Notes under the pieces: model-generated | Told to the model about the DNA's origin: nothing | What the model saw: the letters and a program-made list of their open reading frames with translations, nothing else | The model's database searches: none | Assembly (NCBI GenBank): GCA_000403215.2 | Contig: KE159534.1 | Span: 50,701-112,686 of the forward strand | DNA length: 61,986 nucleotides | From: Lachnospiraceae bacterium A4 | GTDB taxonomy: Bacteria; Bacillota; Clostridia; Lachnospirales; Lachnospiraceae | Reading direction: 5' to 3' | Shown here: in pieces, positions 33,670-50,499 of the stretch | Layout of the letters: each line of letters begins with the position of its first letter | How positions within the stretch are numbered: position 1 is the stretch's first letter | Made by a program: the position numbers and the translations under genes

Positions 33670-33694
33670 TATGTTAAAAACTATCTTTAACATA
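33670..33694. promoter_or_regulatory. Operator candidate upstream of the defence island
   Basis: TATGTTAAA and TTTAACATA form a perfect 9+9 inverted repeat with a 7-base spacer, 13 bases before the -35 of the island promoter. It is a plausible target for the XRE protein encoded first in the operon. Confidence 0.5.
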
Positions 33695-33706
33695 ATAAAG
33701 TTTATA

Positions 33707-33735
33707 GTGACATAACAGTCTATATGTGATATAAT
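33707..33735 (+). promoter_or_regulatory. Promoter of the phosphorothioation-type operon
   Basis: GTGACA (33707-33712), 17 bases, TATAAT (33730-33735), 54 bases before the first start codon. It is the only strong promoter seen before the 16.5-kb run of same-strand genes. Confidence 0.65.
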
Positions 33736-33789
33736 TTTTTCAGATGTATAACAATAGAATTTTGGCAAGTTATATGGAAGGTAAAGAAT

Positions 33790-34026
33790 ATGACGGTTTC
33801 TTATAATGGTTTGTGGAAAATGTTAATTGACAAGAATATGTATAAGAAGGATTTAGCATCAGAATTAAATATAAGTTCAGCAACAATGGCAAAAATGGGA
33901 AAAGGCGAAAGTGTATCTATGGATGTGTTAGCGCGAATATGCAGTTATATGGATTGTGATATTGGAGATATTATGAGCTTTGAAAAGATTGACAGAGAGG
34001 AAGCACCGAGTAATGGTAGTAAATAA
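33790..34026 (+). CDS. XRE-family regulator of the island
   Basis: Protein of 78 residues, essentially one helix-turn-helix domain: WKMLIDKNMYKKDLASELNI, SSATMAKMGKGESVSMDVLA, then YMDCDIGDIM, given in parts. The form is YozG/Cro-like. ATG 33790 follows GGAAGG. The stop overlaps the DUF4007 start by 14 bases. As first gene of the operon with a palindrome upstream of its promoter, it is the probable autorepressor. Confidence 0.85.
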   Translation: MTVSYNGLWKMLIDKNMYKKDLASELNISSATMAKMGKGESVSMDVLARICSYMDCDIGDIMSFEKIDREEAPSNGSK

Positions 34027-34888
34027 GCACGGAAGTTTTTATATGCGAAGCGGATGGGGAACCAAAATCATTCAGGCAGTAAAAGAAGATAATATGATTT
34101 TTTCGCCAAGTAATGAGCAGGCGGCAATTGACTCTATTGGTCTGGGGCGCATAATGATAAAAGCGTTACGATATTGGTCAGATGTAATGGGGTTGACGAA
34201 CGAGGTTAAGACACAAAATGGTATAAGAAAAGAACCAACGCAATTGTTTGAATATATAGATAAATACGACAGATATTTTCAACGCATGGGGACAATGAGT
34301 TTACTTCATAGAAACCTTGCCTTAAATGTTGATGAGGCAACCGCATGGTATTGGTTATTTAATGAGTGGAACAGTACCACGATTACAAAGGAAGAATTTT
34401 CAGATGGTTTCCACACATATCTTGCTGTTAATGGCATGAAAATTAAGAAAGATGCTGTAGATAAAGAATATAATTGTGTCAAAAACACATATATTGGCGA
34501 GAAATCTTTTGATTTAAAAACCATTATGGACGAGGATACTTATCCATTTTTGGCACCACTAAAAGTTTTGAAAACTGGAGAAAAGAAAGTTTTATTGAAA
34601 ACACACTTAAATAGTCGTGAGATTCCGGTGGAACTTCTAATTTATTGTATAGCTTTGGATAATAGAGATCAGAATTTTGAAGGAAATCAGATAAGTATTG
34701 AAGTCTTAATGGAAGAAAAATGTCAGGTGGGAAGGTATTTTAATTTTAGATATTCCGAATTGATAGATATGCTTCTTGAGGCGGAAAATAAAAGATATAT
34801 CGGTCTTAATAATAATTTTGGGAATAGATATATTGAATTTATAGGTTATGATTATACGAGCCTGTTAGATAAATACTTTATTGGATAG
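34013..34888 (+). CDS. DUF4007-family protein
   Basis: Protein of 291 residues; ATG 34013 lies within the XRE gene, after GAGAGGAAG. The sequence GSFYMRSGWGTKIIQAVKED, SIGLGRIMIKALRYWSDVMG and FQRMGTMSLLHRNLALNVDEATAWYWLFNEWN (in parts) matches DUF4007. I recall that family from Dnd-type and related defence loci; this was not checked. The N-terminal part (HGSFYMRSGW...) and the E-A-T-A-W-Y-W helix are the conserved landmarks. Biochemical role is unknown; it could read the modification state of DNA or couple to the following ATPase. Confidence 0.7.
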   Translation: MVVNKHGSFYMRSGWGTKIIQAVKEDNMIFSPSNEQAAIDSIGLGRIMIKALRYWSDVMGLTNEVKTQNGIRKEPTQLFEYIDKYDRYFQRMGTMSLLHRNLALNVDEATAWYWLFNEWNSTTITKEEFSDGFHTYLAVNGMKIKKDAVDKEYNCVKNTYIGEKSFDLKTIMDEDTYPFLAPLKVLKTGEKKVLLKTHLNSREIPVELLIYCIALDNRDQNFEGNQISIEVLMEEKCQVGRYFNFRYSELIDMLLEAENKRYIGLNNNFGNRYIEFIGYDYTSLLDKYFIG

Positions 34889-34898
34889 GAAGGCAGTT

Positions 34899-37800
34899 AT
34901 GAAATATTCACAGCTCATAGAAAAAAGAAAACAGTATAAGTATTCGGCGAATATTTGTTTTGACTTAGAGAATGAAAATCGCTTGTCCGGATTTATTCCT
35001 AATGTGACAACAACGGAGATTTTGCGTGAGTATTTATATGGAATAATTCAAAAAGGAGATACACATTCCAGAATTTTATATGGTTCATATGGAACAGGAA
35101 AGTCACATCTACTCACGGTATTAAGCGCATTATTAGGGCATATAAATACAGATGGCAAGGCATTTGATATTTTTATAAATGCAATTGAACATTATGATAA
35201 AGAATTTGCAAAGGATATAAAAGCTTACGTCAATAATGATAAACCATACTTGGTAGTGCCGATTTATTCCGATTTTTCAGATTTTGACAGATGCATATCA
35301 TTTTCACTGAAAAAAGAGATGGGAAAATTAGGCTACGAAATATGTTTTAAAAATTATTTTCACGAAGCATTAGTACTTCTTGAAAATTGGGAACAAGGGG
35401 AAGATTCCTCTCTTCGTTTAAATCAGATTTTGTGCGATTTGAAAATTGATATGAATAAATTAAAGAATAGTCTTGCTAATTTTGAAACATTAAGTGAAAA
35501 GATGTTTGACGAGGTTTTTAAGATGATGACCTACGGCGCCTCATTTGTAAGCGGTGTAGGAAACCTTATAGATAATTTGAATCAAGCGAATCAGACTATT
35601 ATAGATGATTATAGGGGAATCGTATTTGTATTTGATGAATTTGGAAGATACATTGAGGATAATAGCGAAAGCATAAAAGTTAAAACCATTCAAGACTTTG
35701 CAGAGTATTGTGATCATACGGATTACGACAATCATTTAATTTTGGTGTCACACAAGCAACTGTCTCTGTATACGGATAAAATGAAAAAAAGTCTTAGTGA
35801 TGAATGGAAAAAAATTGAGGGAAGATTTAAGTCTACTTCTATCAATATTAAGTATGACCAATGCCTTTCTTTGATCCCGCACATTATTCCTAAAACGAAA
35901 AAATGGGAGGATTTTAGAAATAAATATTCAGAAGAATTAAATTCTCTTTATGAACAGGCTTGGGATTTTAAAGGCTTTTTACTACCGCCTGAAGGAGGCA
36001 ACCCATTTGAAGGAGGATACCCGCTTCATCCAATTACACTTTATGCATTAGACAGATTATCAAAAAAAGTGGCACAGAATGAAAGAACATTCTTTACATA
36101 TCTTGCAAGCGATGAAAAAAATTCGCTTTTTTCGCAGTTGAGGAATCTGAAGGATGACAGGTTTCATTTTGTTGGATTAGATTATATTTATGATTATTTT
36201 GAAGAGAATATCATGTCATTCAGGGTGAATGACATCTATTTGGTATATAAAAAATTACAGTATGCGATTAACAAATTAGGAGATATGCAGAATTCAATAG
36301 AGGTCAGAATTTTAAAGGCAATGGCGGTTATCAATATTATTTCTGATACAGCTATCCTGTCATCTAACAGAAATACCTTGTGTCATGTTATCGATGAAAA
36401 TGACGCTGATGTCATAAGAGCAATTGAAGAGTTGGAGCAGAAGAAAATCATTAGGTATATGCGACAATATGGGTTTTATGATTTTCTTGATAGCAGTATT
36501 TATGATTTTGATTCGCTGATTGAAGAAAGGATACCTGCAATCAGCGATGAAATGGTAACAGCTACATTAAATGACGAGTTTTCTTGTTTTGCAATTTATC
36601 CAAATGATTATAACTTTACATATCATATGAACAGGATATTTGCACCGGTATTTGCTTACAGGGCAGATATCAGTAAAAAAACATTCTTAAAATCGCTGCC
36701 GGCATATTATGATGGTATTGTTGCGTTCATTTTGGACAGAAATTATATGATAGAAGAGTATGCTGTAGACGCTGGAATACCTGAACGTACAATTTGTTTG
36801 GTAAATACTGTACCGCAAACAATCGAGAATGAGGTTAAACGTTATATTTCTGTTAAGTATTATTATGCAAAAAGGGAAGAATTAAAAAAGGATGATCCAA
36901 CAGTCGAGAAAGAACTTCTTTTATATTTAGAAGAAGAAAAAGCAATCGTGAATGATTTGATTGAGAGTTGGAAAAACATGGTGGACAAGAATATCGTTTC
37001 AATCGTGTATGGAGAAGAAAGAAATATTTCATCAGCATTGGAATTGACTAAAATTGCTTCAGATGTGGTGGAAAAAGCTTTCCCTAGAACGATAATTGTT
37101 AATAACGACTTGGTAAATAAAAATGCAATTTCTGGAGCCATTAAATTAGCGAGAGCTAAAGCACTTGAATATATTATGGGCGATGAGGATGACATTCTAA
37201 AAGAATGCACACTATTGTCGCCGGAACATACAATTATTCGGTCAGTGCTTGTGAAAAATGGCTTATATGATGATGAAACAAATGCAACTCTTAATGTTTT
37301 GCCAGATGGTGAGTATTCCGGAAGAGCTGTGCAAAAAGAAATAAGAGATTATTTAAAAAAGACGCAAAAAGCACCTGTTCCTTTAATGGAGATATACAAA
37401 AAGTTAAAGCAACCTCCATATGGATTGAGAGACGGATATCTTCCAATTTTGCTCGCGTTTGAAATGAAGAAACATGAAAATGTATCAATATCATTTCATG
37501 GCGCAGACAGAGATTATTGCATTGATGAACTTATAAAAGCATTTGAAAGTCCGGAGGATTTTTCGATATATATTTGCAACTGGGATAGGCAGCAGAGGGA
37601 ATTCATTGAGAGGACGGAGGCGTTATTTGGGGGATATAGAAACAGCAAGTCCAAGAGCAGGCTTAAGGATTTATTAAATGCTATGAATACACATTTTGCA
37701 GGAGTAAGTAAAAGCGCGAGAACAACCGAAAAATTTGTCACTGCAAAAACAAAACTTTACAGAGATATTATGAGTGTGTCATGCAAGGATTACAATGCGT

Positions 37801-38420
37801 TTTTCTTTGAAATATTACCACAAATTAATCGAGATTTATCTGAACTTTCTTATGAACTTGAAGTGATTAAAAACGAGTTAGAAAATGTATCGAAACTGCA
37901 ACTGGCAGAGGCAGATAGGATTATTCGAAATATTTTCGAGATAGCAGATACAATCAGTATAGTTAATTATTTTGCAAAAAAATATGAGGATGATTGGTCT
38001 CAAAAAGAACATAAGGTGTTTGATTATCAGACGAATGCAATGATTGAGTACTTAAAAACTTTTAATCGTGGGAATGAGGATAATATATTTATAGAGGAAT
38101 TAGCGCAAGTAATTACAGGGTTTGAAATTGGATATTGGAATGACTCTAAAATGGATGACTTCAATGATACGTTGCTACGCATTATATATCAACTAGAGAA
38201 TTTTGAGGTCAAAGAAGGCTTGGAAGATAATGAAGTAAAAATTATAATTCAAGCCGGAAATGAGAATTTAAGGAGCACGCAATTTGACAAACAAGAGTTG
38301 AGCGGAAATGGACAAGTAATGTTCAATAAAATGAAGTCAACGCTTGAAAACTTTGGACAGTCGTTATCTCAAGAGGAAAAAATGCAGATTGTTGCAAGGC
38401 TATTGGAAGAGATAATGTAG
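34899..38420 (+). CDS. Large P-loop ATPase of the island (1,173 residues)
   Basis: The start is ATG 34899 after AGGAAGG, 10 bases past the DUF4007 stop. Walker A GSYGTGKS lies at about residues 62-69 and a Walker-B-like FVFDEFGRYIED at about 244-255. Coiled-coil-rich regions lie in the second half, for example around SYELEVIKNELENVSKLQLAEAD (in parts). Size and domain order resemble BrxC-type and other large defence ATPases. In a phosphorothioation setting it would be an energy-dependent sensor or DNA-remodelling subunit. No nuclease motif is evident. Confidence 0.8.
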   Translation: MKYSQLIEKRKQYKYSANICFDLENENRLSGFIPNVTTTEILREYLYGIIQKGDTHSRILYGSYGTGKSHLLTVLSALLGHINTDGKAFDIFINAIEHYDKEFAKDIKAYVNNDKPYLVVPIYSDFSDFDRCISFSLKKEMGKLGYEICFKNYFHEALVLLENWEQGEDSSLRLNQILCDLKIDMNKLKNSLANFETLSEKMFDEVFKMMTYGASFVSGVGNLIDNLNQANQTIIDDYRGIVFVFDEFGRYIEDNSESIKVKTIQDFAEYCDHTDYDNHLILVSHKQLSLYTDKMKKSLSDEWKKIEGRFKSTSINIKYDQCLSLIPHIIPKTKKWEDFRNKYSEELNSLYEQAWDFKGFLLPPEGGNPFEGGYPLHPITLYALDRLSKKVAQNERTFFTYLASDEKNSLFSQLRNLKDDRFHFVGLDYIYDYFEENIMSFRVNDIYLVYKKLQYAINKLGDMQNSIEVRILKAMAVINIISDTAILSSNRNTLCHVIDENDADVIRAIEELEQKKIIRYMRQYGFYDFLDSSIYDFDSLIEERIPAISDEMVTATLNDEFSCFAIYPNDYNFTYHMNRIFAPVFAYRADISKKTFLKSLPAYYDGIVAFILDRNYMIEEYAVDAGIPERTICLVNTVPQTIENEVKRYISVKYYYAKREELKKDDPTVEKELLLYLEEEKAIVNDLIESWKNMVDKNIVSIVYGEERNISSALELTKIASDVVEKAFPRTIIVNNDLVNKNAISGAIKLARAKALEYIMGDEDDILKECTLLSPEHTIIRSVLVKNGLYDDETNATLNVLPDGEYSGRAVQKEIRDYLKKTQKAPVPLMEIYKKLKQPPYGLRDGYLPILLAFEMKKHENVSISFHGADRDYCIDELIKAFESPEDFSIYICNWDRQQREFIERTEALFGGYRNSKSKSRLKDLLNAMNTHFAGVSKSARTTEKFVTAKTKLYRDIMSVSCKDYNAFFFEILPQINRDLSELSYELEVIKNELENVSKLQLAEADRIIRNIFEIADTISIVNYFAKKYEDDWSQKEHKVFDYQTNAMIEYLKTFNRGNEDNIFIEELAQVITGFEIGYWNDSKMDDFNDTLLRIIYQLENFEVKEGLEDNEVKIIIQAGNENLRSTQFDKQELSGNGQVMFNKMKSTLENFGQSLSQEEKMQIVARLLEEIM

Positions 38421-38437: not shown

Positions 38438-40045
38438 ATGATATTTTGGTGCGATAAATGCCAAGAACCGATTTTTGATAAGGAACTACATAAGCACTCA
38501 TGTAAGGGTACTATTAAAAAAATATCTGATGGGACTATTTGCAATCCAGTATTTTTGCAAGAACGCAAACTACTCAGTTGTATTTGCGGAGAAGATTTAA
38601 GCAACAAGAAAATTTGGTATTTTGGAGCGAGCAAGTATTATTATGAAGGGCAACTTAAAAAAATACCATATAGGGATTGGTATAAGGGCAAGAAACATCT
38701 TTTGTTTGCCGAGGAGCTTCGAGAAAATATAGCTATAGAGAGCGACTATACTGTATATATGGGAGTAGTAGAAGCAAACTTATCATATGTTAAGAATTTA
38801 GTGTATGAGGCCGAAAATTATATTACTAATATTATGAATCAGTATAAGGCGGCGCATTATATACCGACCGTATCATTTTCCGGAGGTAAGGATTCAACGG
38901 TAGTGAGTCGTCTGGTACGGGATGCGCTTCAGGATAATTCTGTCTTACATTTTTTTGGAGACACAACGCTTGAATTTAAGGAGACTTACGATTATGTGAG
39001 AAATAAGTTTCGTAAGGAAAATCCGTTAGTTCCTATGTTGCCCAGTGAAACTGAAAACGATTTCTTTAAGCTCTGTAAGGTTTTTGGACCACCAAGCCAG
39101 CATGAAAGATGGTGCTGCACGATTTTCAAGACGAGTAATCTGAACAAGGAACTTGATAATTTGCCCGGAAATAGCTTGTCATTCTTGGGGATACGGCATA
39201 GTGAATCACTTGCAAGAAAGTCATATGAACGGACACAAGAGCATTCAAAAATATCTTCGCAGATAAATGCGATGCCAATTATAGAATGGACAGATTATGA
39301 TGTCTGGCTGTATATCTTATACAGGGATATATTGGTGAATGACTGTTACCAATATGGATATAAGCGAGTTGGGTGTTGGTGTTGTCCAAATAACTCGGAT
39401 TGGTCAATGATGTTGACAGAAATATACCACCCAGAGGATATGCAGCGTTGGAAAGACATGATATATGATTTTGCCAGAAAAACCGGCAAAACGGATATTG
39501 ATGATTATTATGATGAAGGAAGATGGAGAACGAGGCGAGGAGCGAGCGGACTTCAGGTGAAAAACGTGTCAATTGTAGACACTGTCTGCAATCTATCGGA
39601 CAGAGCCCGGAACATTATTATAGAAAAAAAGTTGAATAAAGATGTTGTTGAATTTTTTAAACCATTAGGTGATTTAAAAATAGTCGAAAAAGCTGATGCG
39701 ACTTACATTTCAGTATTTGACGTGGATAAATCTGATGTATATAGGAAATGTTTTGAGCTTATTATTTCATTTGGAACGAATGTAGTTAAGGTGTTGCCGG
39801 AGGAACGAATAGATATTACGAATTTGATAAATAGAATAAAATGCCAGCTTCGTAAGTATCAATTTTGCATCAGATGTTCAGCGTGTGATTCAGTGTGTCC
39901 TCATGGTGCGATAGACACAATTCACGGAACATACCATATTGATGAATCTAAATGTGTGCATTGCAAAAAATGTGTAGCCAAGTTTTATAATGGCTGCATA
40001 ATATGTGACAAAGTTGCTGGAAAGAAGGAGGATAAAGATGATTAA
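38438..40045 (+). CDS. PAPS-reductase-like sulfurtransferase (DndC-like) fused to a 2[4Fe-4S] ferredoxin
   Basis: Protein of 535 residues. An N-terminal zinc-ribbon-like segment (C5, C8, C22, then C48/C50) precedes an ATP-pyrophosphatase PP-loop domain with S-G-G-K-D-S at 148-153 and cluster cysteines WCC at 226-227 and CWCC at 313-316. The C-terminus (477-523) is a ferredoxin: CIRCSACDSVCP and CVHCKKC...C. DndC activates DNA with ATP and transfers sulfur. This version carries its own electron-transfer domain and resembles archaeal PAPS-reductase/ferredoxin fusions more than textbook DndC. The stop overlaps the GHKL gene by 8 bases. Confidence 0.8.
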   Translation: MIFWCDKCQEPIFDKELHKHSCKGTIKKISDGTICNPVFLQERKLLSCICGEDLSNKKIWYFGASKYYYEGQLKKIPYRDWYKGKKHLLFAEELRENIAIESDYTVYMGVVEANLSYVKNLVYEAENYITNIMNQYKAAHYIPTVSFSGGKDSTVVSRLVRDALQDNSVLHFFGDTTLEFKETYDYVRNKFRKENPLVPMLPSETENDFFKLCKVFGPPSQHERWCCTIFKTSNLNKELDNLPGNSLSFLGIRHSESLARKSYERTQEHSKISSQINAMPIIEWTDYDVWLYILYRDILVNDCYQYGYKRVGCWCCPNNSDWSMMLTEIYHPEDMQRWKDMIYDFARKTGKTDIDDYYDEGRWRTRRGASGLQVKNVSIVDTVCNLSDRARNIIIEKKLNKDVVEFFKPLGDLKIVEKADATYISVFDVDKSDVYRKCFELIISFGTNVVKVLPEERIDITNLINRIKCQLRKYQFCIRCSACDSVCPHGAIDTIHGTYHIDESKCVHCKKCVAKFYNGCIICDKVAGKKEDKDD

Positions 40046-41696
40046 AGAAGAACGCAGAAAAGATTTGCCGATAATAAGAGTTATGACTGGCATAAGAAAC
40101 ATGGGATATACATTGGAAAGTGCTATTCTTGATATTGTAGATAATTCGATAGTTGCAGGAGCTAAAAAGGTTAATATTATTATTCAGGCAGAGGATAAAA
40201 CATTAAAACAATCTATAAGAAGAATCATAATTGATGATGATGGAAAAGGAATGAACACAGACCAAATTTACAATGCACTGGAATTGGGATCATCAGAAAG
40301 TTTATATGAAAACAATTCTTTGTCAAAATATGGATTTGGTTTGAAAAGTGCTGGATTTTCTCAAGCGAATACAATTATAGTGATTTCTAAAACTGAAACA
40401 TGCGAAAATTGGCATAAATCAATGGTAAAGTGGGATTTGATAAAAACACATAACAGATATGTTGTGGATGAAGAATTAGAACTTGATGCTAATGATATAA
40501 CCCTTTTGGAAAATAAAAAAACAGGAACAATTGTAATATTGGATGAACTAACAAAAGTCAGTAAAGTTAAGAAAGATGTGGCAATAAAGAAAATTAGTGA
40601 AAAATGTGCTATAACCTTTCATAGATTTATGGAAGATGATGGATTGGAAATAAAAGTTAATGAAAAGAATGTAGAACCTTACGATCCGCTGTTTTGTAAT
40701 GAAATAGCAGAAAATATGATTGATTATAATGGTAGAAAAGTTTGTAAATACTTTGATGATGACTATAGTTTGGTTCTTAATTCTAAAAATAAGAGTAAAG
40801 CAATTATTAGGGCAGTACTGCTTCCAAACCCACCATTATTTGAAAAGGAAGGATTACAGAAGAAAATAAATTCTAAATATCAGATAAAACAAAAAAATAT
40901 TGGGTTTTATATATATAGAAACAAGAGATTAATTGTAGAGGCAACTACATTATCTCTATTTTCTAGAAGTGAGCCAAGACTTTTGGCTTCAAGAATAAGG
41001 ATTGATTTGGATTCGTTGTGTGATGATGAAATAAATCTTGATGTTAAGAAAACATCACTTGTTTTTCCAGAACGATTTATGGAACAATTAAGAGATTTAT
41101 TAAACCCTTATTTAAAACGTTCTAAAGACTTATGGGATGAAATGAAGATTAGAAAGGTCAACAATGATCAGGAAATTGCAACAGATTCAGATTCATTACA
41201 TAAAAGAAGTAACGAGATGCTAAAAAGTATATCACCGGTTGTTGTTGATCCTCAAACTGGGAATATTGAACCAATGCAGGGCTATATGGAGGCACATATA
41301 GATAATTTAAAGGAAAAGTATAATATTGATGATAGCATAATTGATGAAATACGTAAAAAAAATAGCCAACGAGTCATTACTGTCAGTGAATTGCCAAAGG
41401 GAATGCTATGGGCTCCGAATATCGGAGGAGAAAATAGTAGTCAGGTAGTGGTTCACTTATCTAGGCAACATCCATTTTACGAGAAGGTGTATAAGAAATT
41501 AGAAGATGGATGTGATGCAGTTGTAATCTTGGATGCACTATTTTTAAACATGGCAATGGCTGAAATGGGCATAAACTGTGGCGATAGTAAATATGAAAAA
41601 ATATTTGCAAAACTTAGGCAGTCGGTTTCTCACCAGTTGGAAAACTTTATAGATTTAGAGATGGATGATGAGGATTACGATGATGAAAACCTATAG
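40038..41696 (+). CDS. GHKL (Hsp90/MORC-type) ATPase
   Basis: Protein of 552 residues; ATG 40038 follows GGAGG. The Bergerat ATP site is complete: N-box LDIVDNSI at about 31-38, DDDGKGM at 66-72 and KYGFGLKSAG at 97-106. A transducer-like domain follows (FYIYRNKRLIVEATTL...RIRIDLDS), then a C-terminal region with no known fold. MORC-like GHKL ATPases clamp DNA and occur in defence operons. A truncated homologue of its first 50 residues lies at 50314-50499. It overlaps the next gene by 14 bases. Confidence 0.85.
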   Translation: MIKEERRKDLPIIRVMTGIRNMGYTLESAILDIVDNSIVAGAKKVNIIIQAEDKTLKQSIRRIIIDDDGKGMNTDQIYNALELGSSESLYENNSLSKYGFGLKSAGFSQANTIIVISKTETCENWHKSMVKWDLIKTHNRYVVDEELELDANDITLLENKKTGTIVILDELTKVSKVKKDVAIKKISEKCAITFHRFMEDDGLEIKVNEKNVEPYDPLFCNEIAENMIDYNGRKVCKYFDDDYSLVLNSKNKSKAIIRAVLLPNPPLFEKEGLQKKINSKYQIKQKNIGFYIYRNKRLIVEATTLSLFSRSEPRLLASRIRIDLDSLCDDEINLDVKKTSLVFPERFMEQLRDLLNPYLKRSKDLWDEMKIRKVNNDQEIATDSDSLHKRSNEMLKSISPVVVDPQTGNIEPMQGYMEAHIDNLKEKYNIDDSIIDEIRKKNSQRVITVSELPKGMLWAPNIGGENSSQVVVHLSRQHPFYEKVYKKLEDGCDAVVILDALFLNMAMAEMGINCGDSKYEKIFAKLRQSVSHQLENFIDLEMDDEDYDDENL

Positions 41697-43582: not shown

Positions 43583-43583
43583 A

Positions 43584-45749
43584 ATGTCATTTAAAGATTT
43601 GAAATTGTTGAAGTACTACAAAACATATAAGAACAATATTGTAAAAGAGTTTTATAATCCTGTCTTGAAAAACGCTGTACTGTATCAGCGATCAGTAGGT
43701 TTTTTCTCATCGACTGCATTGATAGAATTGACGAAGGGCATCTCAGGACTTGTTAAAAACAAAGGGAAAATACAATTGATTGTATCACCGTATCTTTCAC
43801 CGGAGGATGTTGAGGCAATTGAAAAGGGATATGAGAAACGAAAAATAATTGAGGAGGCGTTATTAAGAGAATTTAAGGAGCCAGAAAATTATTTTCAGGA
43901 AGAACGGTTAAATCTATTGGCTCATTTAATAGAAGAAGGTACATTAGAATTAAAAGTGGCATTTACCCCGCCGAATAAAAACACAGGTATGTACCATGAA
44001 AAGGTTGGGATTATTAAGGATGAGAACGGAGATAAAATAGTATTTACAGGTTCTCTAAACGAAACAATCAATGCCTTTTACAATAATTATGAGTCAATAG
44101 TAGTTTTTACTTCATGGGAAGAATCAAAAGAATATGCGGAAGAAATGCAAAGAGATTTTGATTTGCTATGGAGTGGAGGAGACAATGATTTGGAGGTGAT
44201 TGATTTCCCGGAAGTTGTGAAAGATAAGATTACAATATGCAAGAAGACAGAGGTTCATTATGATATAGATGAAGAAGAGAAAATTGAAGATATTAAGGAG
44301 GCAGTGAGAGGAAATCCACGAATGCCTCAGGGGTTTATATTAAGAGATTACCAAATAGATTCGATAGAACATTGGAAAAATAATAGTTATCATGGCATTT
44401 TTGACATGGCAACTGGAACAGGGAAGACTTACACAGGATTAGGTGCAGTCGTTAAGCTGTTTGAGGATAAGGAGAAATTAGCAATTGTAATTGTATGTCC
44501 ATATCAGCATTTAGTTGAACAATGGGTAGAAGATATTGAATTATTTAATATGGAGCCAATTATAGGATATTCAGCTTCCAAGCAAAAGAATTGGAAACAA
44601 AGGCTTAAAGATGATGTGTTAGATTTTAATCTTGGAATAATAAAGTCATTTTGTTTTGTGACGACTAATGCGACATATTCTTCTAAGTTCGTGACGGAAA
44701 TAATGGGAAGCTTAGGGAAAGACACTTTGCTGCTTGTGGATGAAGCACATAATTTTGGCTCAAATAATTTGCGAAAACGATTATATTCGCAGATAGAGTA
44801 TAGACTTGCACTATCTGCCACGTTGGAACGACATGGGGATGAAGAGGGAACAGAGGCATTAAAAAAATATTTTGGCAGGAAGTGCATTGAATATGATTTA
44901 AAGAAAGCGATTGCTGATGGGAAATTAACACCATATTATTATTATCCGGTACTTGTCTTTTTAGATGAAGAAGAACTGGCAGAATACAAAGATGTATCTT
45001 ATAGAGTGTCAAAAGAGTGCCACAAGGATAAGCGTGGTAAATTACAGGTTACAGAAAAAGGGAAAATGCTATTAATGCAACGTGCCAGAATCGTTGCGGG
45101 AGCAAAAAATAAGCTTAGTGTTTTAAGGGATAAAATGCAGGACTATAAAGACGATTCTCATATATTGGTATACTGTGGGGCAACCAGAGTTCCGACTTTT
45201 GAGCATGATGAATCTGAGCACGATGAAGAAGGAGAAAGACAAATAGTAGCCGTATCAAAAATCCTAGGTAATGAACTGGGAATGAAAGTGACGCATTTTA
45301 CATCAAATGAGTCAGCTCAGGAAAGAGAGGCTATAAAAAGGCGATTTGCAACAGCCGAACCATATCAGGCAATTGTTGCAATTAAATGTTTGGATGAAGG
45401 TGTCAATATTCCGAGCATCAGAACGGCATTTATTTTGGCAAGTACTACGAATCCTAAAGAATATATACAAAGACGTGGCAGGGTTTTACGCCTTGCAAAA
45501 AACAAACCATATGCTGTGATATACGATTTTGTAACGCTTGCGACACCGCTAGACGAGGTAAATGTATATGGCGTGGACTTTAATTGTGAAAGAGCGCTGG
45601 CAAAAAGGGAACTGGCAAGAATAAAAGAATTTGGAGAAATTGCCATGAATTCAAGGGATTCAGATGTGTTAATCAATGATATTATCGATGCTTATCAGAT
45701 TTCAGATGAAGAAATGGAGGACGTAGAAGATGGATCAGAATTTAGATGA
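43584..45749 (+). CDS. Phospholipase-D-like nuclease fused to a superfamily 2 helicase
   Basis: Protein of 721 residues. The N-terminal PLD-type domain has HxK in YHEKVGIIKDENGDKIVFTGSLNE (parts; H138, K140), the single-HKD form found in restriction enzymes. The helicase domain has Walker A MATGTGKT at 275-282, DEAH at 386-389, LSATLERH (motif III), and motif VI QRRGRVLR. Such fusions cut and translocate on DNA in restriction systems. It would be the main effector against unmodified DNA. Its 3' end overlaps the 49-residue gene by 20 bases. Confidence 0.9.
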   Translation: MSFKDLKLLKYYKTYKNNIVKEFYNPVLKNAVLYQRSVGFFSSTALIELTKGISGLVKNKGKIQLIVSPYLSPEDVEAIEKGYEKRKIIEEALLREFKEPENYFQEERLNLLAHLIEEGTLELKVAFTPPNKNTGMYHEKVGIIKDENGDKIVFTGSLNETINAFYNNYESIVVFTSWEESKEYAEEMQRDFDLLWSGGDNDLEVIDFPEVVKDKITICKKTEVHYDIDEEEKIEDIKEAVRGNPRMPQGFILRDYQIDSIEHWKNNSYHGIFDMATGTGKTYTGLGAVVKLFEDKEKLAIVIVCPYQHLVEQWVEDIELFNMEPIIGYSASKQKNWKQRLKDDVLDFNLGIIKSFCFVTTNATYSSKFVTEIMGSLGKDTLLLVDEAHNFGSNNLRKRLYSQIEYRLALSATLERHGDEEGTEALKKYFGRKCIEYDLKKAIADGKLTPYYYYPVLVFLDEEELAEYKDVSYRVSKECHKDKRGKLQVTEKGKMLLMQRARIVAGAKNKLSVLRDKMQDYKDDSHILVYCGATRVPTFEHDESEHDEEGERQIVAVSKILGNELGMKVTHFTSNESAQEREAIKRRFATAEPYQAIVAIKCLDEGVNIPSIRTAFILASTTNPKEYIQRRGRVLRLAKNKPYAVIYDFVTLATPLDEVNVYGVDFNCERALAKRELARIKEFGEIAMNSRDSDVLINDIIDAYQISDEEMEDVEDGSEFR

Positions 45750-45879
45750 AAAGAAACTGGACAATATTAAATATCAGATACTTGATATGGAAACGGAAAA
45801 CATTGTTAAGAAAGAGTCAAATCCTGCCATGGTTGATAAGATTAGAAAGATGATAATACGGGAGGTAGAAAAGAGATGA
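45730..45879 (+). CDS. 49-residue microprotein between helicase and DndD-like genes
   Basis: ATG 45730 lies inside the helicase gene and TGA 45877-45879 overlaps the next ATG, so it is coupled on both sides. The protein is a charged amphipathic helix pair (M-D-Q-N-L-D-E-K-K-L..., then NPAMVDKIRKMIIREVEKR). No family recognised. The double overlap argues strongly that it is translated. It could be an adaptor for the helicase or the SMC-like ATPase, or a highly reduced DndE-like subunit; the last is speculation. Confidence 0.65.
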   Translation: MDQNLDEKKLDNIKYQILDMETENIVKKESNPAMVDKIRKMIIREVEKR

Positions 45880-47873
45880 TTATCAATAGGCTTGAAATGT
45901 TTAATTTCAGACAGTACATAGGGCTGCAATCAGTTGAATTTTCTACCGATAAAGATAAAAATGTAACGGTGCTTATCGGGGTAAATACATCTGGAAAAAC
46001 AACGATTGTCAGGGCATTTGAATGGTGTCTTTATGGGAAAAACGGATTTGAAGATACCGTTCTTTTAAATAGTGAAGTACGTACGAATATGAAGGAATCA
46101 GATGTTCAAGAAGTTTGGGTATCCGTAACATTTACACATGATGACATTGTGTATACGATTAAACGTTCTCATAAATATGTATGTGTTGAAAGATATACAG
46201 AGAATGGCAGATTTGTTGTAACTTTGGGGAAAAAGCCAGACGAAAATGTTATGCTTGAATATTTGATGAAGGATGGACAGACAAAGATTCCTATAGATAA
46301 ATCAAATATTGATGAATCAATGAACAGAATTTTACCAAAAGATTTATCAGATTACTTCTTTTTCGGTGGTGAACGGATATCTGGAATAGCTAACAGAACG
46401 GATTTGTCGAAAGCAGTTAGAGGATTGATGAGATTAGATGTGTTAGAAAATGCATATACACATCTAAAGACTGTAGTAAAAGGATTTGAAGATGAAATAG
46501 ATACTTCCGGCGATGCTAACGCTCAAAGAGCAAAGGACAGCCTCGATACATATACTGACAGAAAGAAAGCTTTAGAGCAGGAATTACAGAATTATGAGAA
46601 GCAGGTATCCTATTGGCTTGATAAGGAAAAGGAATATGATGCAAAGCTGGCAAAAAGTAATATTGATCAAGTTAAGGAATTGGCAGAAAAAAGAAGAAAT
46701 GCGCAAAGTGCTCTTGAAGGAGAAGTACAGAAATTAGAGAGAGTTAAAGGAGAAATGGTTCGCTCATTTAACAACCGTACTTTTGCCTATTTTGGACTGC
46801 CGTCTATTAAAGAAACACTTGAATTTTTAGAAAATCAAAACAATAAAACAGGTGGAGTTAGAGAAAGTATTCCGGCGATGGAACAGGATGCAATAGATTT
46901 TCTTGTGAAGAGGAGAATTTGTATATGTGGAACCCGACTAGATCCCGGAACAATACCGTATGCAAAAGTAATGGAAGAAAGACGCGTATTGCCGCCAGAA
47001 CATGTGGGGGATGCCGTAAGGCAATACAAAGATAAGTCAGAGGGATATTTGGCAGGTACAGAAGATTTTAAAGATAATATTGAGAGAAAGTTTATAGAGT
47101 ATCGTGAAACCAAAAGGCAGATAACCAAATTGCAAAATGAATTGGAGTCATTAGCGGGAGAAGTAATTGACGATACAGAGGCGAGAAATATTGAAAAAAA
47201 TCGCAGGGAAGCACATACAAAATATTTGGAGGCAAAAGACGATTACGATTCCTGTAACAGAAAACTTGGAGAGTGTAATTCCAACATTAGTAATTGTCAA
47301 AAGGCTATTGATAAGTTTGCAAAAAGCAGTACCAAGAATCAAAGAGCAGCAAGACTTATTGCATATGCGCAGCATGTCTATGGATGGCTTTTTGATACTT
47401 ACAAGGAAAAGGAAGATGTTGTGCGTGCTGAGTTGCAAAAGCGTGTCAATGACAATTTTTCTAAAATGTATCACGGTGATAGAGCCATTGAAATTGATGA
47501 AAAATATCGTGTGAGATATTCCGATATAACTACAGAGGAGTCAGATGGTTTGAAAGCGGTTAAAAGCTTTGCTTTTATTGCAAGTTTAGTATCAATGGCT
47601 AAGGATAAAATTTTGGATGATGGAGATATGAAATTGGGACAGGTGTACCCGCTTGTCATGGATGCACCATTTTCGAATGTAGATGAGATTCATATTGACA
47701 ATATATGTAAAATCCTTCCGAATACTGCTAATCAGGTAATAATGGCAGTCATGCAGAAAGACTGGGAATATGCGTCTGAAAATCTTGAAAGCTATGTGGG
47801 TAAAAGTTATAAGATTGAAAAAGACAGAGATGAATTTGGCAAAGAAATTGATACGGCTACACATATTATCTGA
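45876..47873 (+). CDS. dndD: DndD-like SMC/Rad50-type ATPase
   Basis: Protein of 665 residues. The N-terminal ATPase lobe starts NRLEMFNFRQYIG with Walker A GVNTSGKTT at about 35-43. DYFFFGGERI at about 157-166 is a DndD hallmark. Two coiled-coil arms flank a central CICGTRLDPG (about 348-357), a zinc-hook-like turn with C-x-C. The C-terminal lobe carries VMDAPFSNVDE (about 594-604), the Walker B/D-loop. DndD hydrolyses ATP during DNA phosphorothioation, possibly altering DNA shape for sulfur insertion. ATG overlaps the microprotein stop. Confidence 0.85.
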   Translation: MIINRLEMFNFRQYIGLQSVEFSTDKDKNVTVLIGVNTSGKTTIVRAFEWCLYGKNGFEDTVLLNSEVRTNMKESDVQEVWVSVTFTHDDIVYTIKRSHKYVCVERYTENGRFVVTLGKKPDENVMLEYLMKDGQTKIPIDKSNIDESMNRILPKDLSDYFFFGGERISGIANRTDLSKAVRGLMRLDVLENAYTHLKTVVKGFEDEIDTSGDANAQRAKDSLDTYTDRKKALEQELQNYEKQVSYWLDKEKEYDAKLAKSNIDQVKELAEKRRNAQSALEGEVQKLERVKGEMVRSFNNRTFAYFGLPSIKETLEFLENQNNKTGGVRESIPAMEQDAIDFLVKRRICICGTRLDPGTIPYAKVMEERRVLPPEHVGDAVRQYKDKSEGYLAGTEDFKDNIERKFIEYRETKRQITKLQNELESLAGEVIDDTEARNIEKNRREAHTKYLEAKDDYDSCNRKLGECNSNISNCQKAIDKFAKSSTKNQRAARLIAYAQHVYGWLFDTYKEKEDVVRAELQKRVNDNFSKMYHGDRAIEIDEKYRVRYSDITTEESDGLKAVKSFAFIASLVSMAKDKILDDGDMKLGQVYPLVMDAPFSNVDEIHIDNICKILPNTANQVIMAVMQKDWEYASENLESYVGKSYKIEKDRDEFGKEIDTATHII

Positions 47874-47887: not shown

Positions 47888-48439
47888 ATGTTTGATAAAG
47901 ATTTTAGAATAACAGGGAAACATGCGAACTATTGGAAAGATTTATGTGAATTGGCAGGGAATGTTCCAGATAGGGATCAACATAATAATTTTAAGATTTT
48001 CAGCGCTTATATTGATGCATATGTAGTGTGTCCTTTGATTGGGTTTCAATACAATAGAAAAAGCGTGATTGATAATTCAGAAGAGGGTAATGCGGGTATG
48101 CTGGCAGAAGTATTTGGGAAAAGACGGCAGGAGTTAAAATATGTTTATCAGATCATTATGATGTTAGATACGGATTCTGAGCCAGATGAGGATAAACGTT
48201 TATACAGAGCTTTTAAATTTGCTGCTGAAACACCAGAAGATAAGTCCTTAATTGAAGAAAATATGAAAATATACAATGCTTATTTTCTTGGTGGATTGGA
48301 AATTCTTCATGAGGAATTTGTAGAGCAGTGCCATGATGACGATGATTATCTGAAACAGATGTATGATTATGTAAAACGTTTTTATGATGAACAAGACGGA
48401 GATGCCATACGGGATGGGATAAACAAATATTTAGGCTGA
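47888..48439 (+). CDS. Unknown 183-residue island protein
   Basis: ATG 47888 follows GGAGG, 15 bases after the DndD-like gene. The protein starts MFDKDFRITGKHANYWKDLC, is mostly helical, and has a conserved-looking SAYIDAYVVCPLIGFQY segment and an acidic C-terminal third. It is larger than canonical DndE (about 110 residues) and I see no DndE motif, but it occupies the position of dndE after dndD. Position alone suggests a DndD partner. Confidence 0.7.
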   Translation: MFDKDFRITGKHANYWKDLCELAGNVPDRDQHNNFKIFSAYIDAYVVCPLIGFQYNRKSVIDNSEEGNAGMLAEVFGKRRQELKYVYQIIMMLDTDSEPDEDKRLYRAFKFAAETPEDKSLIEENMKIYNAYFLGGLEILHEEFVEQCHDDDDYLKQMYDYVKRFYDEQDGDAIRDGINKYLG

Positions 48440-48456
48440 TTGAAGGGGATGAAGTT

Positions 48457-49413
48457 TTGCTGGGACTGTCTGCCAATGAAGTGATAGAGGAATTAAATAA
48501 TGACTTCTGTGCCTTTCAAGTCTCTGAGTTTCTTGAAAAGTCTGGGTTTTTGCAGGACAAACAACCTTGTATAACAGAGGATTTGCAAAGGTTGATATTT
48601 TTACAAGGCAATCAAGAAGAGGTTTACACCGTATTAGAACGTAAATTTATAGAACAAGTGGGAAAGGTTTATATTTTTCCAGAATTCTATAAAAAAACAA
48701 AACGTGGAAATATGCCCTGCAGATTTATTGCAGTAGATTTGTCAAAATGGTGGAACGATATATATAATGCAGTATTTTTTATGAAAATTATCATAAAGGC
48801 ATTTTCGGGATTTAGTTTATTCATAATAAAATCCAATGATGGCATTCATTTGGGTGCGAGATTATTTGATAAGACTGAGTGGAAAAATTGCACTTTATCT
48901 AGGTCAGACGAGTTACCTGATATTTTAGGTGAAGCAGACTGGGAAAATGACACAGATGATTTTTTTGCTTTTTATAATTCCGTAATCGAAGCAATCACAC
49001 CTGTAACAGACAATCATATTGGATATGATGAGAAAATTTTGAAAAGCAGGGGAGTACAAGCTGGTTACGTTGATATGCTCAATGAGATAGAAAATATCTA
49101 TGGAGAAAGCATTTTGGATGAATTGGAACGATATAGAGGCACTTTTGAGGAAATTGAAGAACAGGGATTTGCAGAGATATTAGGGGAGTGTTTGGAGGAT
49201 TTGAAGGATGTTTGCTCAACCAAGATAAATACAATAGAAATGCTTTTTGAAGCAGAAGAACTGGAGAAAATGGCAGAAAAAGCGGAAGCGCAAAGAAATG
49301 TAGATTTTGAAAGTTCTATTAATAGTGAGAGTAACTATATAGTGCTTGGGGAATTGAGTGATGATCCTGAAGTAATAATAAAGAAGTTGAAAAACCTAAA
49401 GGGTTTAAGGTGA
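48457..49413 (+). CDS. Unknown 318-residue island protein
   Basis: TTG 48457 is the only reasonable start, 9 bases after AAGGGG. No known domain. The middle part is predicted alpha/beta (VDLSKWWNDIYNAVFFMKII, GFSLFIIKSNDGIHLGARLF). The C-terminus reads NTIEMLFEAEELEK...DDPEVIIKKLKNLKGLR and matches the tail of the next protein. It is co-transcribed, with 18 bases before and 6 bases after. Confidence 0.7.
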   Translation: MLGLSANEVIEELNNDFCAFQVSEFLEKSGFLQDKQPCITEDLQRLIFLQGNQEEVYTVLERKFIEQVGKVYIFPEFYKKTKRGNMPCRFIAVDLSKWWNDIYNAVFFMKIIIKAFSGFSLFIIKSNDGIHLGARLFDKTEWKNCTLSRSDELPDILGEADWENDTDDFFAFYNSVIEAITPVTDNHIGYDEKILKSRGVQAGYVDMLNEIENIYGESILDELERYRGTFEEIEEQGFAEILGECLEDLKDVCSTKINTIEMLFEAEELEKMAEKAEAQRNVDFESSINSESNYIVLGELSDDPEVIIKKLKNLKGLR

Positions 49414-49419
49414 GTGTAC

Positions 49420-50298
49420 ATGAAATACTACAATTTGTCAGAAGGAAACTTCAAAACCGGAAAATTGCCGGAGAATGAAATGTGGGAAGCGTTTCATTGG
49501 CTCTTTTCGGATAAGTCAGTCAATGATTCTAGCTATAAATTCATTTTTTTAAAGTCAATAATTGATTGTATGGATAGAAAAGATGAATTTGATAAGATAA
49601 GCTTTGATATTTTGTTTGAACGGTTTACATCAATTTCGTGGAATCTTGTGTTAAAATATGGAATTTCGCAAAAAATAAAATCAATAGGAAAGAAAGCAAC
49701 AGTATTAGAACAGGAATTACAAGATTTTCTAGTGTTAAATGGATATGACCGATATGTTCCGATAGAGGAAATTGATGATGAAAAACGAAGAAAATTAGTA
49801 TTTAAGATAAAACAAGGTTGTAAGAGGTATGTTATAGGTGCTTTGTTTGGGGATATGAAAGAATTACTATATTCTTTTTCTAAGAAGGAACAATGGATAA
49901 AGTTAAATCCTCAAATGGAAGTATTTGTAATAAAACATAAAAATGTTATTGAAAGCTTGAATTATTGTAAGTGGGCGTCTTTTTATGAAAAGATAAATTC
50001 AGATAAGACTAAAAACTATATTATTTCTGTGTTAGATAAAGATTTTGAAAAGAGAAAGAATGAGTCAATATACAGAGCGCTTCTTGCGTATGAATTTGAA
50101 AGGGAAATGACCGTATATAGGGTAAATACAATGGAATTATTATTTATGGCTGAGGATAGTGGAGAAAATGCGGAAATCGTTAATAGAAATAATATAGAAG
50201 AGGAACTCTTTCAAGACTATAGTAGTATGAGAAAATATTTAGCAAATCCAATTGACTTGATCGGTAAGTTAAAAAGAGACAAAGGTATTGAAGTATAA
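49420..50298 (+). CDS. Unknown 292-residue island protein, tail shared with neighbour
   Basis: ATG 49420 (GTG 49414 also possible). The N-terminal domain MKYYNLSEGNFKTGKLPENE, YKFIFLKSIIDCM and FERFTSISWNLVLKYGI resembles the N-terminus of some HNH-nuclease proteins, but no HNH residues follow. The C-terminal NTMELLFMAEDSGEN...ANPIDLIGKLKRDKGIEV parallels the end of the preceding protein. The shared tail suggests a common docking partner within the complex. Confidence 0.65.
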   Translation: MKYYNLSEGNFKTGKLPENEMWEAFHWLFSDKSVNDSSYKFIFLKSIIDCMDRKDEFDKISFDILFERFTSISWNLVLKYGISQKIKSIGKKATVLEQELQDFLVLNGYDRYVPIEEIDDEKRRKLVFKIKQGCKRYVIGALFGDMKELLYSFSKKEQWIKLNPQMEVFVIKHKNVIESLNYCKWASFYEKINSDKTKNYIISVLDKDFEKRKNESIYRALLAYEFEREMTVYRVNTMELLFMAEDSGENAEIVNRNNIEEELFQDYSSMRKYLANPIDLIGKLKRDKGIEV

Positions 50299-50313
50299 TA
50301 CGAAGAGGAAGAA

Positions 50314-50499
50314 ATGGCAAGTTATGAGGTGCCAATTATTAGGATATTGAGTGGTTTTAGATGCATGGGATATACGCCAGTTGCTGCGTTTTTGGATATT
50401 ATAGACAATACAATTGCGGCAAAAGCTACAGAAGTTGAAGCTATAGTGGAAACAAGCGAAAAGCATATGTCCCAGTATAAATTGGGTTATTTAAAGTAG
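50314..50499 (+). pseudogene. Truncated second GHKL ATPase (N-terminal 50 residues)
   Basis: ATG 50314 follows GAGGAAG. The sequence YEVPIIRILSGFRCMGYTPV, AAFLDIIDNTIAAKATEVEA aligns with the start of the GHKL protein at 40038 (PIIRVMTGIRNMGYT, LDIVDNSIVAGAKKV). The N-box LDIIDNT is kept, but the frame ends after 61 codons and the G-boxes are absent. It appears to be the relic of a second, related ATPase at the operon end, cut by a deletion that joins it to the AlbA-type remnant. Confidence 0.7.

What the first reader, a model, noticed from the sequence alone, without database searches (positions are those of the whole stretch)
33670..50499. Divergent DNA phosphorothioation-type modification/restriction island with non-canonical gene content
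Seen: fourteen consecutive same-strand genes, most overlapping (at 34013, 40038, 41683, 42171, 45730 and 45876), behind one promoter. They encode XRE, DUF4007, a 1,173-aa ATPase, PAPS-reductase/ferredoxin, a GHKL ATPase, a GIY-YIG-like protein, cysteine desulfurase, DUF3343, a PLD-helicase, a 49-aa protein, a DndD-like ATPase and three unknowns. Known: desulfurase plus PP-loop enzyme plus DndD is the Dnd sulfur-modification core. Inference: a full modification-plus-defence system without recognisable DndB, DndE or DndFGH. It may be related to the haloarchaeal DndCDEA-PbeABCD type, but I could not check gene-by-gene correspondence.
Basis: partly seen in the sequence, partly recalled or inferred. 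Interest (0 to 1): 0.88.

Follow-up and report, generated by a model that had tools for sequence, protein, structure and literature searches.

The report
Ssp-Pbe hybrid DNA-sulfur defence operon
A gut-type bacterium carries a 14-gene operon that probably puts sulfur into its own DNA backbone with one known kind of enzyme set and blocks unmarked foreign DNA with another known kind, a pairing that recurs in many bacteria but that I could not find described.

Summary
In detail: 14 intact co-oriented genes at 33790-50298, six of 13 junctions overlapping, plus a 61-aa fragment to 50499. It is a DNA-phosphorothioation (PT) type defence island, but the modification module is not Dnd. It is Ssp/BREX4-type: SspB/DUF4007, SspC, BrxP-type PAPS-reductase-ferredoxin, SspA-like desulfurase. 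The PLD-helicase, 49-aa protein, CxC ABC-ATPase and 183-aa protein correspond to PbeA, PbeB, PbeC and PbeD, the exclusion cassette known from Dnd loci. So a DndE-like gene is probably present. The pairing recurs: 56 of 82 related loci hold all seven scored genes; SspC and PbeA share a strand in 73 of 73. In a phylum sample, Ssp-type genes flank Pbe in 10 of 22 fetched loci, Dnd genes in 2. The papers I could search do not describe the pairing; supplements were not readable. The window's clade adds a CGVC Se/S-carrier (13 of 13). The window adds a GHKL-ATPase/GIY-YIG pair, probably an interchangeable effector. PT itself is unproven. New variant of a known kind.

The parts
33707..33735 (+). promoter-like site (GTGACA-17-TATAAT, TG before -10)
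   Evidence: consensus scan only
33790..34026 (+). g1, XRE/Cro-type HTH regulator, 78 aa
   Evidence: PF13443 72.2 bits vs cut-off 22; tblastn hit (E<=1e-2) in 27 of 82 related loci
34013..34888 (+). g2, SspB-like DUF4007 protein, 291 aa
   Evidence: PADLOC SspB 3.4e-40; PF13182 160.6 bits vs 27; PDB SspB 6juf E 2.7e-4
34899..38420 (+). g3, SspC/BrxC-like ATPase, 1173 aa
   Evidence: PADLOC SspC 2.3e-99, BrxC 1.2e-32; Walker A G, Y, G, G, K, S and DEF 68 of 68
38438..40045 (+). g4, BrxP/SspD-type PAPS-reductase fused to a double 4Fe-4S ferredoxin, 535 aa
   Evidence: PADLOC BrxP 1.3e-80, SspD 2e-14, DndC 8.6e-9; SGGKDS and the eight C-terminal ferredoxin Cys 63 of 63
40038..41696 (+). g5, MutL/MORC/MzaB-like GHKL ATPase, 552 aa
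   Evidence: PF13589 94.4 bits; MzaB 1.4e-34 but 119 bits vs 850 cut-off; alignment
41683..42174 (+). g6, GIY-YIG-like putative nuclease, 163 aa
   Evidence: PF01541 17.6 bits, below cut-off 22.6; YVGET, GR..H and R...E[YF]L kept in window, L024, L030, L033
42171..43292 (+). g7, SspA/DndA-like cysteine desulfurase (EF2568 subtype), 373 aa
   Evidence: SspA 4e-44, DndA 2e-43; TIGR01977 348 bits (cut-off 377); C334 68 of 68
43385..43582 (+). g8, DUF3343 putative Se/S carrier, 65 aa
   Evidence: PF11823 45.4 bits vs 25; PTPVxDKAYCGVC in 13 of 13
43584..45749 (+). g9, PbeA: PLD/HKD nuclease domain fused to SF2 helicase, 721 aa
   Evidence: PADLOC PbeA 3.2e-253; TIGR04095 508 bits (cut-off 600); H138 and K140 83 of 84; D386, E387, H389 84 of 84 and A388 82 of 84
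45730..45879 (+). g10, 49-aa protein in the PbeB position
   Evidence: tblastn E<=1e-2 in 18 of 82 loci; no family hit
45876..47873 (+). g11, PbeC: CxC-type ABC ATPase, 665 aa
   Evidence: PADLOC PbeC 1.6e-114, DndD 8.4e-35; C349 and C351 72 of 72
47888..48439 (+). g12, PbeD (DndE-like), 183 aa
   Evidence: TIGR04062 21.7 bits (cut-off 74); AF2 pLDDT 86.5; best PDB match DndE 4lrv_E, prob 0.60, E 0.92
48457..49413 (+). g13, clade-specific protein of unknown fold, 318 aa, with C-terminal NTxEMLF...DPExxIKxLKxxKG tail
   Evidence: 8 homologues; no significant PDB fold match; tail
49414..50298 (+). g14, 294 aa; some homologues carry a C-terminal HNH nuclease; here that part is replaced by a tail like that of g13
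50314..50499 (+). g15, 61-aa remnant of a second GHKL ATPase, not part of the working operon
   Evidence: MzaB 7e-05; alignment; the place where L030 and L033 keep a full GHKL-GIY pair

Best explanation
A PT-based anti-phage operon built from two modules. Modification (inferred from homology): the desulfurase g7 takes sulfur from cysteine, the CGVC carrier g8 relays the persulfide, BrxP/SspD g4 activates the phosphate and transfers sulfur, and SspB g2 plus the SspC ATPase g3 bind, scan and open the target, as in SspABCD and type-4 BREX. Exclusion (inferred): PbeC/PbeD (CxC ABC ATPase plus DndE-like protein) scan DNA and load PbeA, an HKD-nuclease/SF2 translocase, on DNA lacking PT. PbeA blocks its replication with or without cutting, and the 49-aa PbeB acts as a required regulator. 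The GHKL-GIY pair g5-g6 is an interchangeable extra effector (ATP-gated nuclease) and g1 a repressor-type regulator. Shown: gene identity, intact catalytic motifs, recurrence and module covariation. Inferred: every biochemical step, the mark and the phenotype.
For: PADLOC/Pfam/NCBIfam matches. Catalytic residues conserved in 63 BrxP, 68 desulfurase, 68 SspC, 72 PbeC and 83 of 84 PbeA relatives. All seven scored genes in 56 of 82 loci; SspC and a PbeA frame over 1.7 kb on the same strand in 73 of 73 loci that hold both. Ssp-type genes beside Pbe in 10 of 22 fetched phylum-sample loci. Desulfurase distances track SspB/SspC/BrxP (rho 0.94-0.96) and PbeA/C/D track each other (0.79-0.87), with 0.48-0.68 between blocks, above all 500 permutations for the three pairs tested (the permutations do not correct for host relatedness). 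Ssp-linked PbeA lie together in the PbeA tree. Relatives carry other effectors in or after the operon: SspE-like DUF262 or Mrr proteins. Known biology: DndCDEA-PbeABCD excludes virus and depends on PT (PMC6459918, passages); type-4 BREX shares SspB/C/D homologues (PMC12839542, section 34).
Against: No chemistry or phage data. Covariation between the modules falls to 0.29-0.39 outside the window clade (46 loci), so they do reassort. L038 has PbeA-D in a 22-kb locus without a detected Ssp gene; L037 has none within the 10 kb upstream; L144 has Pbe next to a transposase with no modification gene found in 20 kb; eight more census loci have neither Ssp nor Dnd genes found. TIGR04095 is below its cut-off. 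The PbeD assignment rests on a fold match that is not significant by E-value. g8 was found by tblastn in 12 of 82 loci, all in the window clade, so it is not needed for the general system. The GIY-YIG call is below Pfam's cut-off.
Confidence: 0.78

Rival explanations
1. Two independent defence systems lie side by side: an orphan Ssp/BREX4-type modification set and a Pbe cassette that uses another mark or none.
For: Weak covariation between modules outside the window clade; Pbe without detected Ssp genes in L038 and L144; Pbe beside Dnd in other loci.
Against: One strand in 73 of 73; order PBCA-acd in 43 loci and BCPA-acd in 8; overlapping or abutting genes in the window; Ssp-linked PbeA in one part of the tree; correlation above all 500 permutations for three pairs.
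Confidence: 0.12
2. It is a divergent type-4 BREX (PT-BREX) whose PglZ/BrxL effectors were replaced.
For: BrxP is by far the best match of g4; a desulfurase occurs in 56% of type-4 BREX taxa (PMC12839542).
Against: No PglZ or BrxL by phmmer (E 1e-3), with the own genome's PglZ and BrxL as queries, in the 82 loci or 22 census loci, though a divergent type-4 PglZ could be missed. SspC models match g3 far better than BrxC. The effector is Pbe.
Confidence: 0.1
3. The desulfurase-DUF3343 pair delivers selenium rather than sulfur, giving a phosphoroselenoate or a selenium-dependent step.
For: g7 is nearest EF2568/SclA-type families (TIGR01977, NF040779); DUF3343 is linked to selenium genes (PMC5322559, passages).
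Against: SelD exceeds its cut-off in only 1 of 12 genomes with this clade and not in the window's own (29 vs 125 bits); two others score 102 and 96 bits, so they are open (the genome of L029 was not searched). The same paper proposes Se or S trafficking.
Confidence: 0.03
4. The operon is decaying and not functional in this strain.
For: Truncated GHKL remnant at 50314, no HNH in g14, transposase and group II intron reverse transcriptase genes at the borders.
Against: 14 intact frames with intact motifs. The relative L024 has all 14 genes, with 90% identical PbeA.
Confidence: 0.07

Closest known systems
DndCDEA-PbeABCD (haloarchaeal PT exclusion; CxC ABC-ATPase/DndE system of Rakesh et al. 2024)
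   Same: PbeA HKD-SF2 protein, small PbeB-position protein, CxC PbeC, DndE-like PbeD, in the order A-B-C-D; a linked desulfurase
   Different: Modification by SspB/SspC/BrxP instead of DndC/DndD/DndE; single-strand Ssp chemistry expected, not shown
SspABCD-SspE / SspABCD-SspFGH
   Same: SspA, SspB and SspC homologues; DUF262 SspE-like proteins in some relatives (L054, L071, L103, L028, L034)
   Different: SspD replaced by a BrxP-type enzyme with two 4Fe-4S motifs; Pbe module instead of SspE/SspFGH in the window
Type-4 BREX (brxPCZL)
   Same: BrxP, DUF4007, BrxC/SspC-like ATPase, often a cysteine desulfurase
   Different: No PglZ or BrxL found; Pbe instead
MZA system (mzaABCDE)
   Same: g5 is MzaB-like; the sigma-like protein after PbeD in the one relative scanned (L043) matches MzaA
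   Different: No MzaC-E among the listed matches of operon proteins; GHKL paired with a GIY-YIG-like protein instead

Membership tests
PbeABCD | PbeA: HKD nuclease domain fused to SF2 helicase | tested here: met
   PADLOC PbeA 3.2e-253; HxK 83 of 84; TIGR04095 508 bits, below its 600 cut-off
PbeABCD | PbeC with CxC motif | tested here: met
   C349-I-C351, both Cys 72 of 72; PADLOC PbeC 1.6e-114
PbeABCD | PbeD = DndE cognate with two ribbon-helix-helix units | tested here: inconclusive
   AF2 model with two strand-helix-helix units; rank 1 of 350,542 PDB chains is DndE but E 0.92, prob 0.60
PbeABCD | PbeB small fast-evolving protein between pbeA and pbeC | tested here: inconclusive
   49-aa ORF in place; position and size only
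PbeABCD | PT-dependent block of virus replication | not testable with these tools
   needs phage assay
SspABCD | SspB (DUF4007) | tested here: met
SspABCD | SspC ATPase | tested here: met
   2.3e-99
SspABCD | SspD sulfurtransferase | tested here: inconclusive
   functional equivalent present, but BrxP model (1.3e-80) far ahead of SspD model (2e-14)
SspABCD | SspA desulfurase with catalytic Cys | tested here: met
   4e-44; C334 68 of 68
SspABCD | single-strand PT at CCA | not testable with these tools
   needs LC-MS/MS and PT mapping
Type-4 BREX | PglZ | tested here: not met
   no Pfam hit in the operon; the own genome's PglZ lies about 10 kb left of the window; no phmmer hit in relatives
Type-4 BREX | BrxL | tested here: not met
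DndABCDE-DndFGH | DndC/DndD at equivalog level | tested here: not met
   34 of 290 and 96 of 246 bits; whole own genome: best DndC match 22 bits, inside g4. Positive control: six other genomes pass both cut-offs in the same search
DndABCDE-DndFGH | DndFGH restriction module | tested here: not met
   no PADLOC DndF/G/H among the listed matches at E<=0.01 for operon genes (for g11 the best 25 of 100 are listed)
MZA | mzaC-E beside mzaB | tested here: not met
   no such match listed

The most novel reading that the evidence does not exclude
Ssp-type PT modification plus Pbe exclusion is an unnamed class of PT defence and, in this phylum, the commonest recognised PT partner of Pbe. Pbe modules there also carry a recurrent RNA-polymerase-like component (sigma-70 region 4, sometimes alpha-CTD), so exclusion may be coupled to, or triggered by, interference with transcription. 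The window's clade has swapped that component for g13/g14 proteins sharing a docking tail and, in some members, a GHKL-gated GIY-YIG nuclease, and has added a dedicated persulfide carrier to the sulfur route.
Probability: 0.35. Interest if true: 0.8.

Novelty: new variant of a known kind. Interest (0 to 1): 0.62.

Why it matters
Two published loose ends meet here. Xiong et al. 2019 found 320 of 553 PbeAC 'solitary', without dndCD, and themselves suggested other modification partners (PMC6459918, passages). Wang et al. 2021 found only 7.3% and 7.4% of 2,678 sspBCD beside sspFGH or sspE (PMC8092258, passages). An Ssp-Pbe class could explain part of both and makes 'which mark does Pbe read?' testable in cultured Bacillota. 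It also suggests that exclusion modules can switch between Dnd-type and Ssp-type marks, names a candidate sulfur-relay protein for DNA, and points to an unexplained sigma-factor-like partner.

Tried and rejected
Near-identical DNA in plasmids and phages: no match for the whole operon. PbeA on plasmids: 21 records, all below 60% identity, the 20 listed rows 30-38% (contexts not examined). GHKL on plasmids: none at E 1e-30. Solved-structure search for SspC: none at E 0.01.

g13 fold: model pLDDT 72.5, no PDB match with E<=0.001. Its fold stays unknown. g13 is not homologous to the sigma-like gene at the same place: the profile built from that gene's cluster gave no hit among the window proteins at E 10. 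In reverse, the g13 profile gave one weak hit to a gene at that place (L036|14828, E 9e-4), which I do not count as homology.

Selenium delivery rejected as main reading. Type-4 BREX rejected (no PglZ/BrxL). 'Divergent Dnd' rejected (Dnd cut-offs not reached). A GHKL search of 392 genomes gave 9 hits including the window. I fetched six of the other eight loci; none held a GIY-YIG homologue or any of five Ssp/Pbe genes tested (SspB, SspC, BrxP, PbeA, PbeC). That five of them look like MZA loci is my reading of gene sizes, not a test.

The Dnd models do not bear this out (no DndC match; best DndD match 96 bits, its PbeC). G234 is now counted as unresolved. It sits in the 'Dnd' group of the tree, so that group has five confirmed members, not six. 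The other five and G549 pass both cut-offs; the three Ssp-type genomes included as negatives (G021, G295, G623) do not.

Not done: trees of SspB/SspC/BrxP against type-4 BREX; identification of the modification partner in the nine census loci with neither Ssp nor Dnd genes found.

Rows dropped: one search kept the best 80 of 135 relatives. G599 and G627 (partial PbeA hits) were not fetched; L160 was set aside as having no PbeC. PbeA rows over 800 aa were left out of the tree. For covariation only the 56 loci with all seven genes were used. Of one search's ten hits besides the window, six loci were fetched; L009-L012 (partial or weak) were not mapped. A3 holds only loci whose next same-strand frame after PbeD has 250 aa or more, 56 of 57 (G021 left out).


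Full report
WHAT IS THERE. A fifteenth small frame (50314-50499) is the truncated N-terminus of a second GHKL ATPase. Upstream lies a group II intron reverse transcriptase gene (32235-33533, over its cut-off); downstream is an ISKra4-like transposase (51672-52877; 90 bits against a cut-off of 205).

MODIFICATION MODULE. g2 is a DUF4007/SspB protein, g3 an SspC-like ATPase, g4 a PAPS-reductase with C-terminal double ferredoxin that matches BrxP (1.3e-80) far better than SspD (2e-14) or DndC (8.6e-9), and g7 an SspA/DndA-like desulfurase. No gene reaches a Dnd equivalog cut-off. Across relatives the PP-loop SGGKDS and the eight C-terminal ferredoxin cysteines are kept in 63 of 63 BrxP, the desulfurase Cys in 68 of 68, and the SspC Walker A residues (G, Y, G, G, K, S) plus DEF in 68 of 68. 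Rakesh and Krishnan 2026 report the same reductase-ferredoxin arrangement in type-4 BREX and in a subset of SspD (PMC12839542, section 34 read).

EXCLUSION MODULE. g9 is PbeA, g11 PbeC with its CxC pair (72 of 72), g10 sits in the PbeB place, and g12 in the PbeD place. Rakesh et al. 2024 redefine PbeD as a DndE cognate and PbeC as a CxC ABC ATPase; they also note that CxC systems occur without DndD-type systems in many bacteria and with cytosine methylases in some (PMC10853773, sections 16 and 17 read). My model of g12 (56-row alignment, pLDDT 86.5) has two strand-helix-helix units. Its top match among 350,542 PDB chains is DndE (4lrv_E), with other DndE chains at ranks 4, 12 and 46, although the E-value (0.92) is not significant.

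RECURRENCE. A search of named genomes with a PbeA alignment found 135 relatives; the best 80 were kept. Many of the 26 incomplete ones are cut by a contig edge, but L036, L038, L040, L053, L070, L076, L077 and L089 are not plainly so; L038 shows no Ssp gene at all. Where SspC and a PbeA frame over 1.7 kb occur together they share a strand in 73 of 73, in the order BrxP-SspB-SspC-desulfurase-PbeA-C-D in 43 loci and, as in the window, SspB-SspC-BrxP-desulfurase-PbeA-C-D in 8; the rest are partial or rearranged. Because those loci were chosen by similarity to the window's PbeA, I also took a phylum sample (398 genomes, model TIGR04095, 25 genomes with hits including the window's) and fetched 22 loci. 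Ssp-type genes lie beside Pbe in 10 (in L141 the BrxP match is weak, in L155 there is none), Dnd genes in 2 (L139, L149; DndC and DndD over cut-off), neither was found in 9 (one of them, L144, next to a transposase), and one (L160) has Dnd genes and a weak PbeA-like hit but no PbeC. Some sample genomes also occur in the named set (identical PbeA). In the order sample I mapped six loci besides the window: two Ssp-type (G021, G295), three Dnd-type (G365, G083, G199, confirmed by the DndC and DndD models) and one, G234, that I first took for Dnd but that has no DndC match.

MODULARITY. In 56 complete loci, distances of SspB, SspC, BrxP and desulfurase correlate at 0.94-0.96 and those of PbeA, PbeC and PbeD at 0.79-0.87; between the blocks 0.48-0.68. 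Three tested cross-pairs exceed all 500 permutations, which do not correct for host relatedness. Without the window clade (46 loci) the cross-block values fall to 0.29-0.39. So the desulfurase belongs to the modification block, and the two blocks travel together but reassort. In the PbeA tree (107 rows) the 78 Ssp-linked rows fall within one 93-row group (SH-aLRT 94, just under the starred level) that otherwise holds 14 rows classed unknown (12 with cut loci, plus L037 and L038) and L144. The five confirmed Dnd-linked rows, G234 and eight others lie outside (quick method, midpoint root; several long branches are warned of).

WHAT IS SPECIAL IN THE WINDOW'S CLADE. Twelve loci (L024-L035) and the window share a DUF3343 protein between desulfurase and PbeA, with PTPVxDKAYCGVC (x = T or Q) in 13 of 13; tblastn found it in no other of the 82 loci. 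DUF3343 was proposed as a Se or S trafficking protein (PMC5322559, passages). SelD passes its cut-off in 1 of 12 of these genomes and not in the window's own, so sulfur is the likelier cargo. A GHKL-ATPase/GIY-YIG pair lies between BrxP and the desulfurase in the window and L024, but after g14 in L030 and L033; the window's g15 remnant sits at that second place. In other loci, extra proteins are SspE-like DUF262/GmrSD_N, lying between SspC or desulfurase and PbeA (L071, L054, L103) or after g13/g14 (L034, L028), or an Mrr-type protein between BrxP and SspB (unnamed G021). I therefore read g5-g6 as an interchangeable extra effector. g14 relatives L026, L030, L035 and the one in G365 keep a C-terminal HNH domain (Pfam on L026, the rest by alignment); the window's g14 has instead a tail resembling that of g13. 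The g13-tail profile hits g14 of L028, L033, the window and L024 (E 3e-8 to 7e-5), hardly that of L025 (0.46), and a third protein in L028 (8e-5).

SIGMA-LIKE PARTNER. Of 56 loci whose next same-strand frame after PbeD has 250 aa or more, that protein has sigma-70 region 4 in 38 and region 2 in 36. The one I scanned in PADLOC matches MzaA (2.8e-37), a sigma factor by PMC9523054 (passage). Window-clade genes at that place cluster apart. Of five large proteins just upstream of PbeA in census loci with neither Ssp nor Dnd, four match Sigma70_r4 at E<=0.001, one of them (L152) below Pfam's cut-off. A profile from the downstream genes, which includes two long members, matches all eight large upstream proteins tested, including those of two Dnd-Pbe loci and G234 (E 1.5e-5 or better, but for a search of only ten sequences). 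PMC10853773 mentions sigma only for a DndH domain, and the four papers listed do not announce such a partner in title or abstract start.

LITERATURE. The searches list no paper whose title or abstract start describes Ssp-type modification paired with Pbe, and the passages and sections I saw in PMC10853773, PMC12839542, PMC6459918, PMC8092258, PMC7464106, PMC11931770, PMC12707154 and PMC7461809 do not either; none of these was read whole. Xiong et al. 2020 (Nat Microbiol) was not among the papers listed or seen, and no supplement could be opened, so a listing in a supplementary table is possible. In the passages seen, PMC7464106 counts strains having both PT-modifying genes and pbeA-D without separating Ssp from Dnd.

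VERDICT. A real, intact and recurrent PT-type defence operon; a new variant made of two known modules plus clade-specific additions. The mark and the phenotype remain to be measured.

Noticed in passing
Related loci, gene after PbeD (e.g. L043 14882-15982, L054 14883-15971); large genes upstream of PbeA in L150, L152, L153, L157: Sigma-70-like (sometimes alpha-CTD-bearing) proteins are recurrent neighbours of Pbe modules; purpose unknown.
   Followed up: partly
own genome contig C8 about 34000-45000 (L169), left of the window: A BREX-type cluster (PglZ 869 aa, BrxL 711 aa) lies about 10 kb left of the window. The genome has a single DUF4007 gene, so it is probably not type 4.
   Followed up: partly
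window 50674-51333 and 52926-53474: Two frames flanking the ISKra4-like transposase may be halves of one ATP-binding (RecG-C-terminal-like) gene split by the element; only the second has a significant Pfam match.
   Followed up: no
window 32235-33533: A group II intron-type reverse transcriptase/maturase gene ends about 170 nt upstream of the operon's promoter-like site; the intron's ends were not mapped.
   Followed up: no
window 48457-50298 and L028 16769-17908: Otherwise different proteins share a C-terminal tail (NTxE-LF ... DPxxxI-KLKxxKG), as if for docking to a common partner.
   Followed up: partly
   Followed up: partly
G234 locus (L017, L018): A Pbe locus with a PAPS-reductase-like (333 aa) and a desulfurase-like gene after PbeD but no DndC match and no DndD over the cut-off: possibly another modification type.
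   Followed up: no
L101 13969-15273: A HARE-HTH plus DndB-domain protein follows PbeD in an Ssp-Pbe locus.
   Followed up: no
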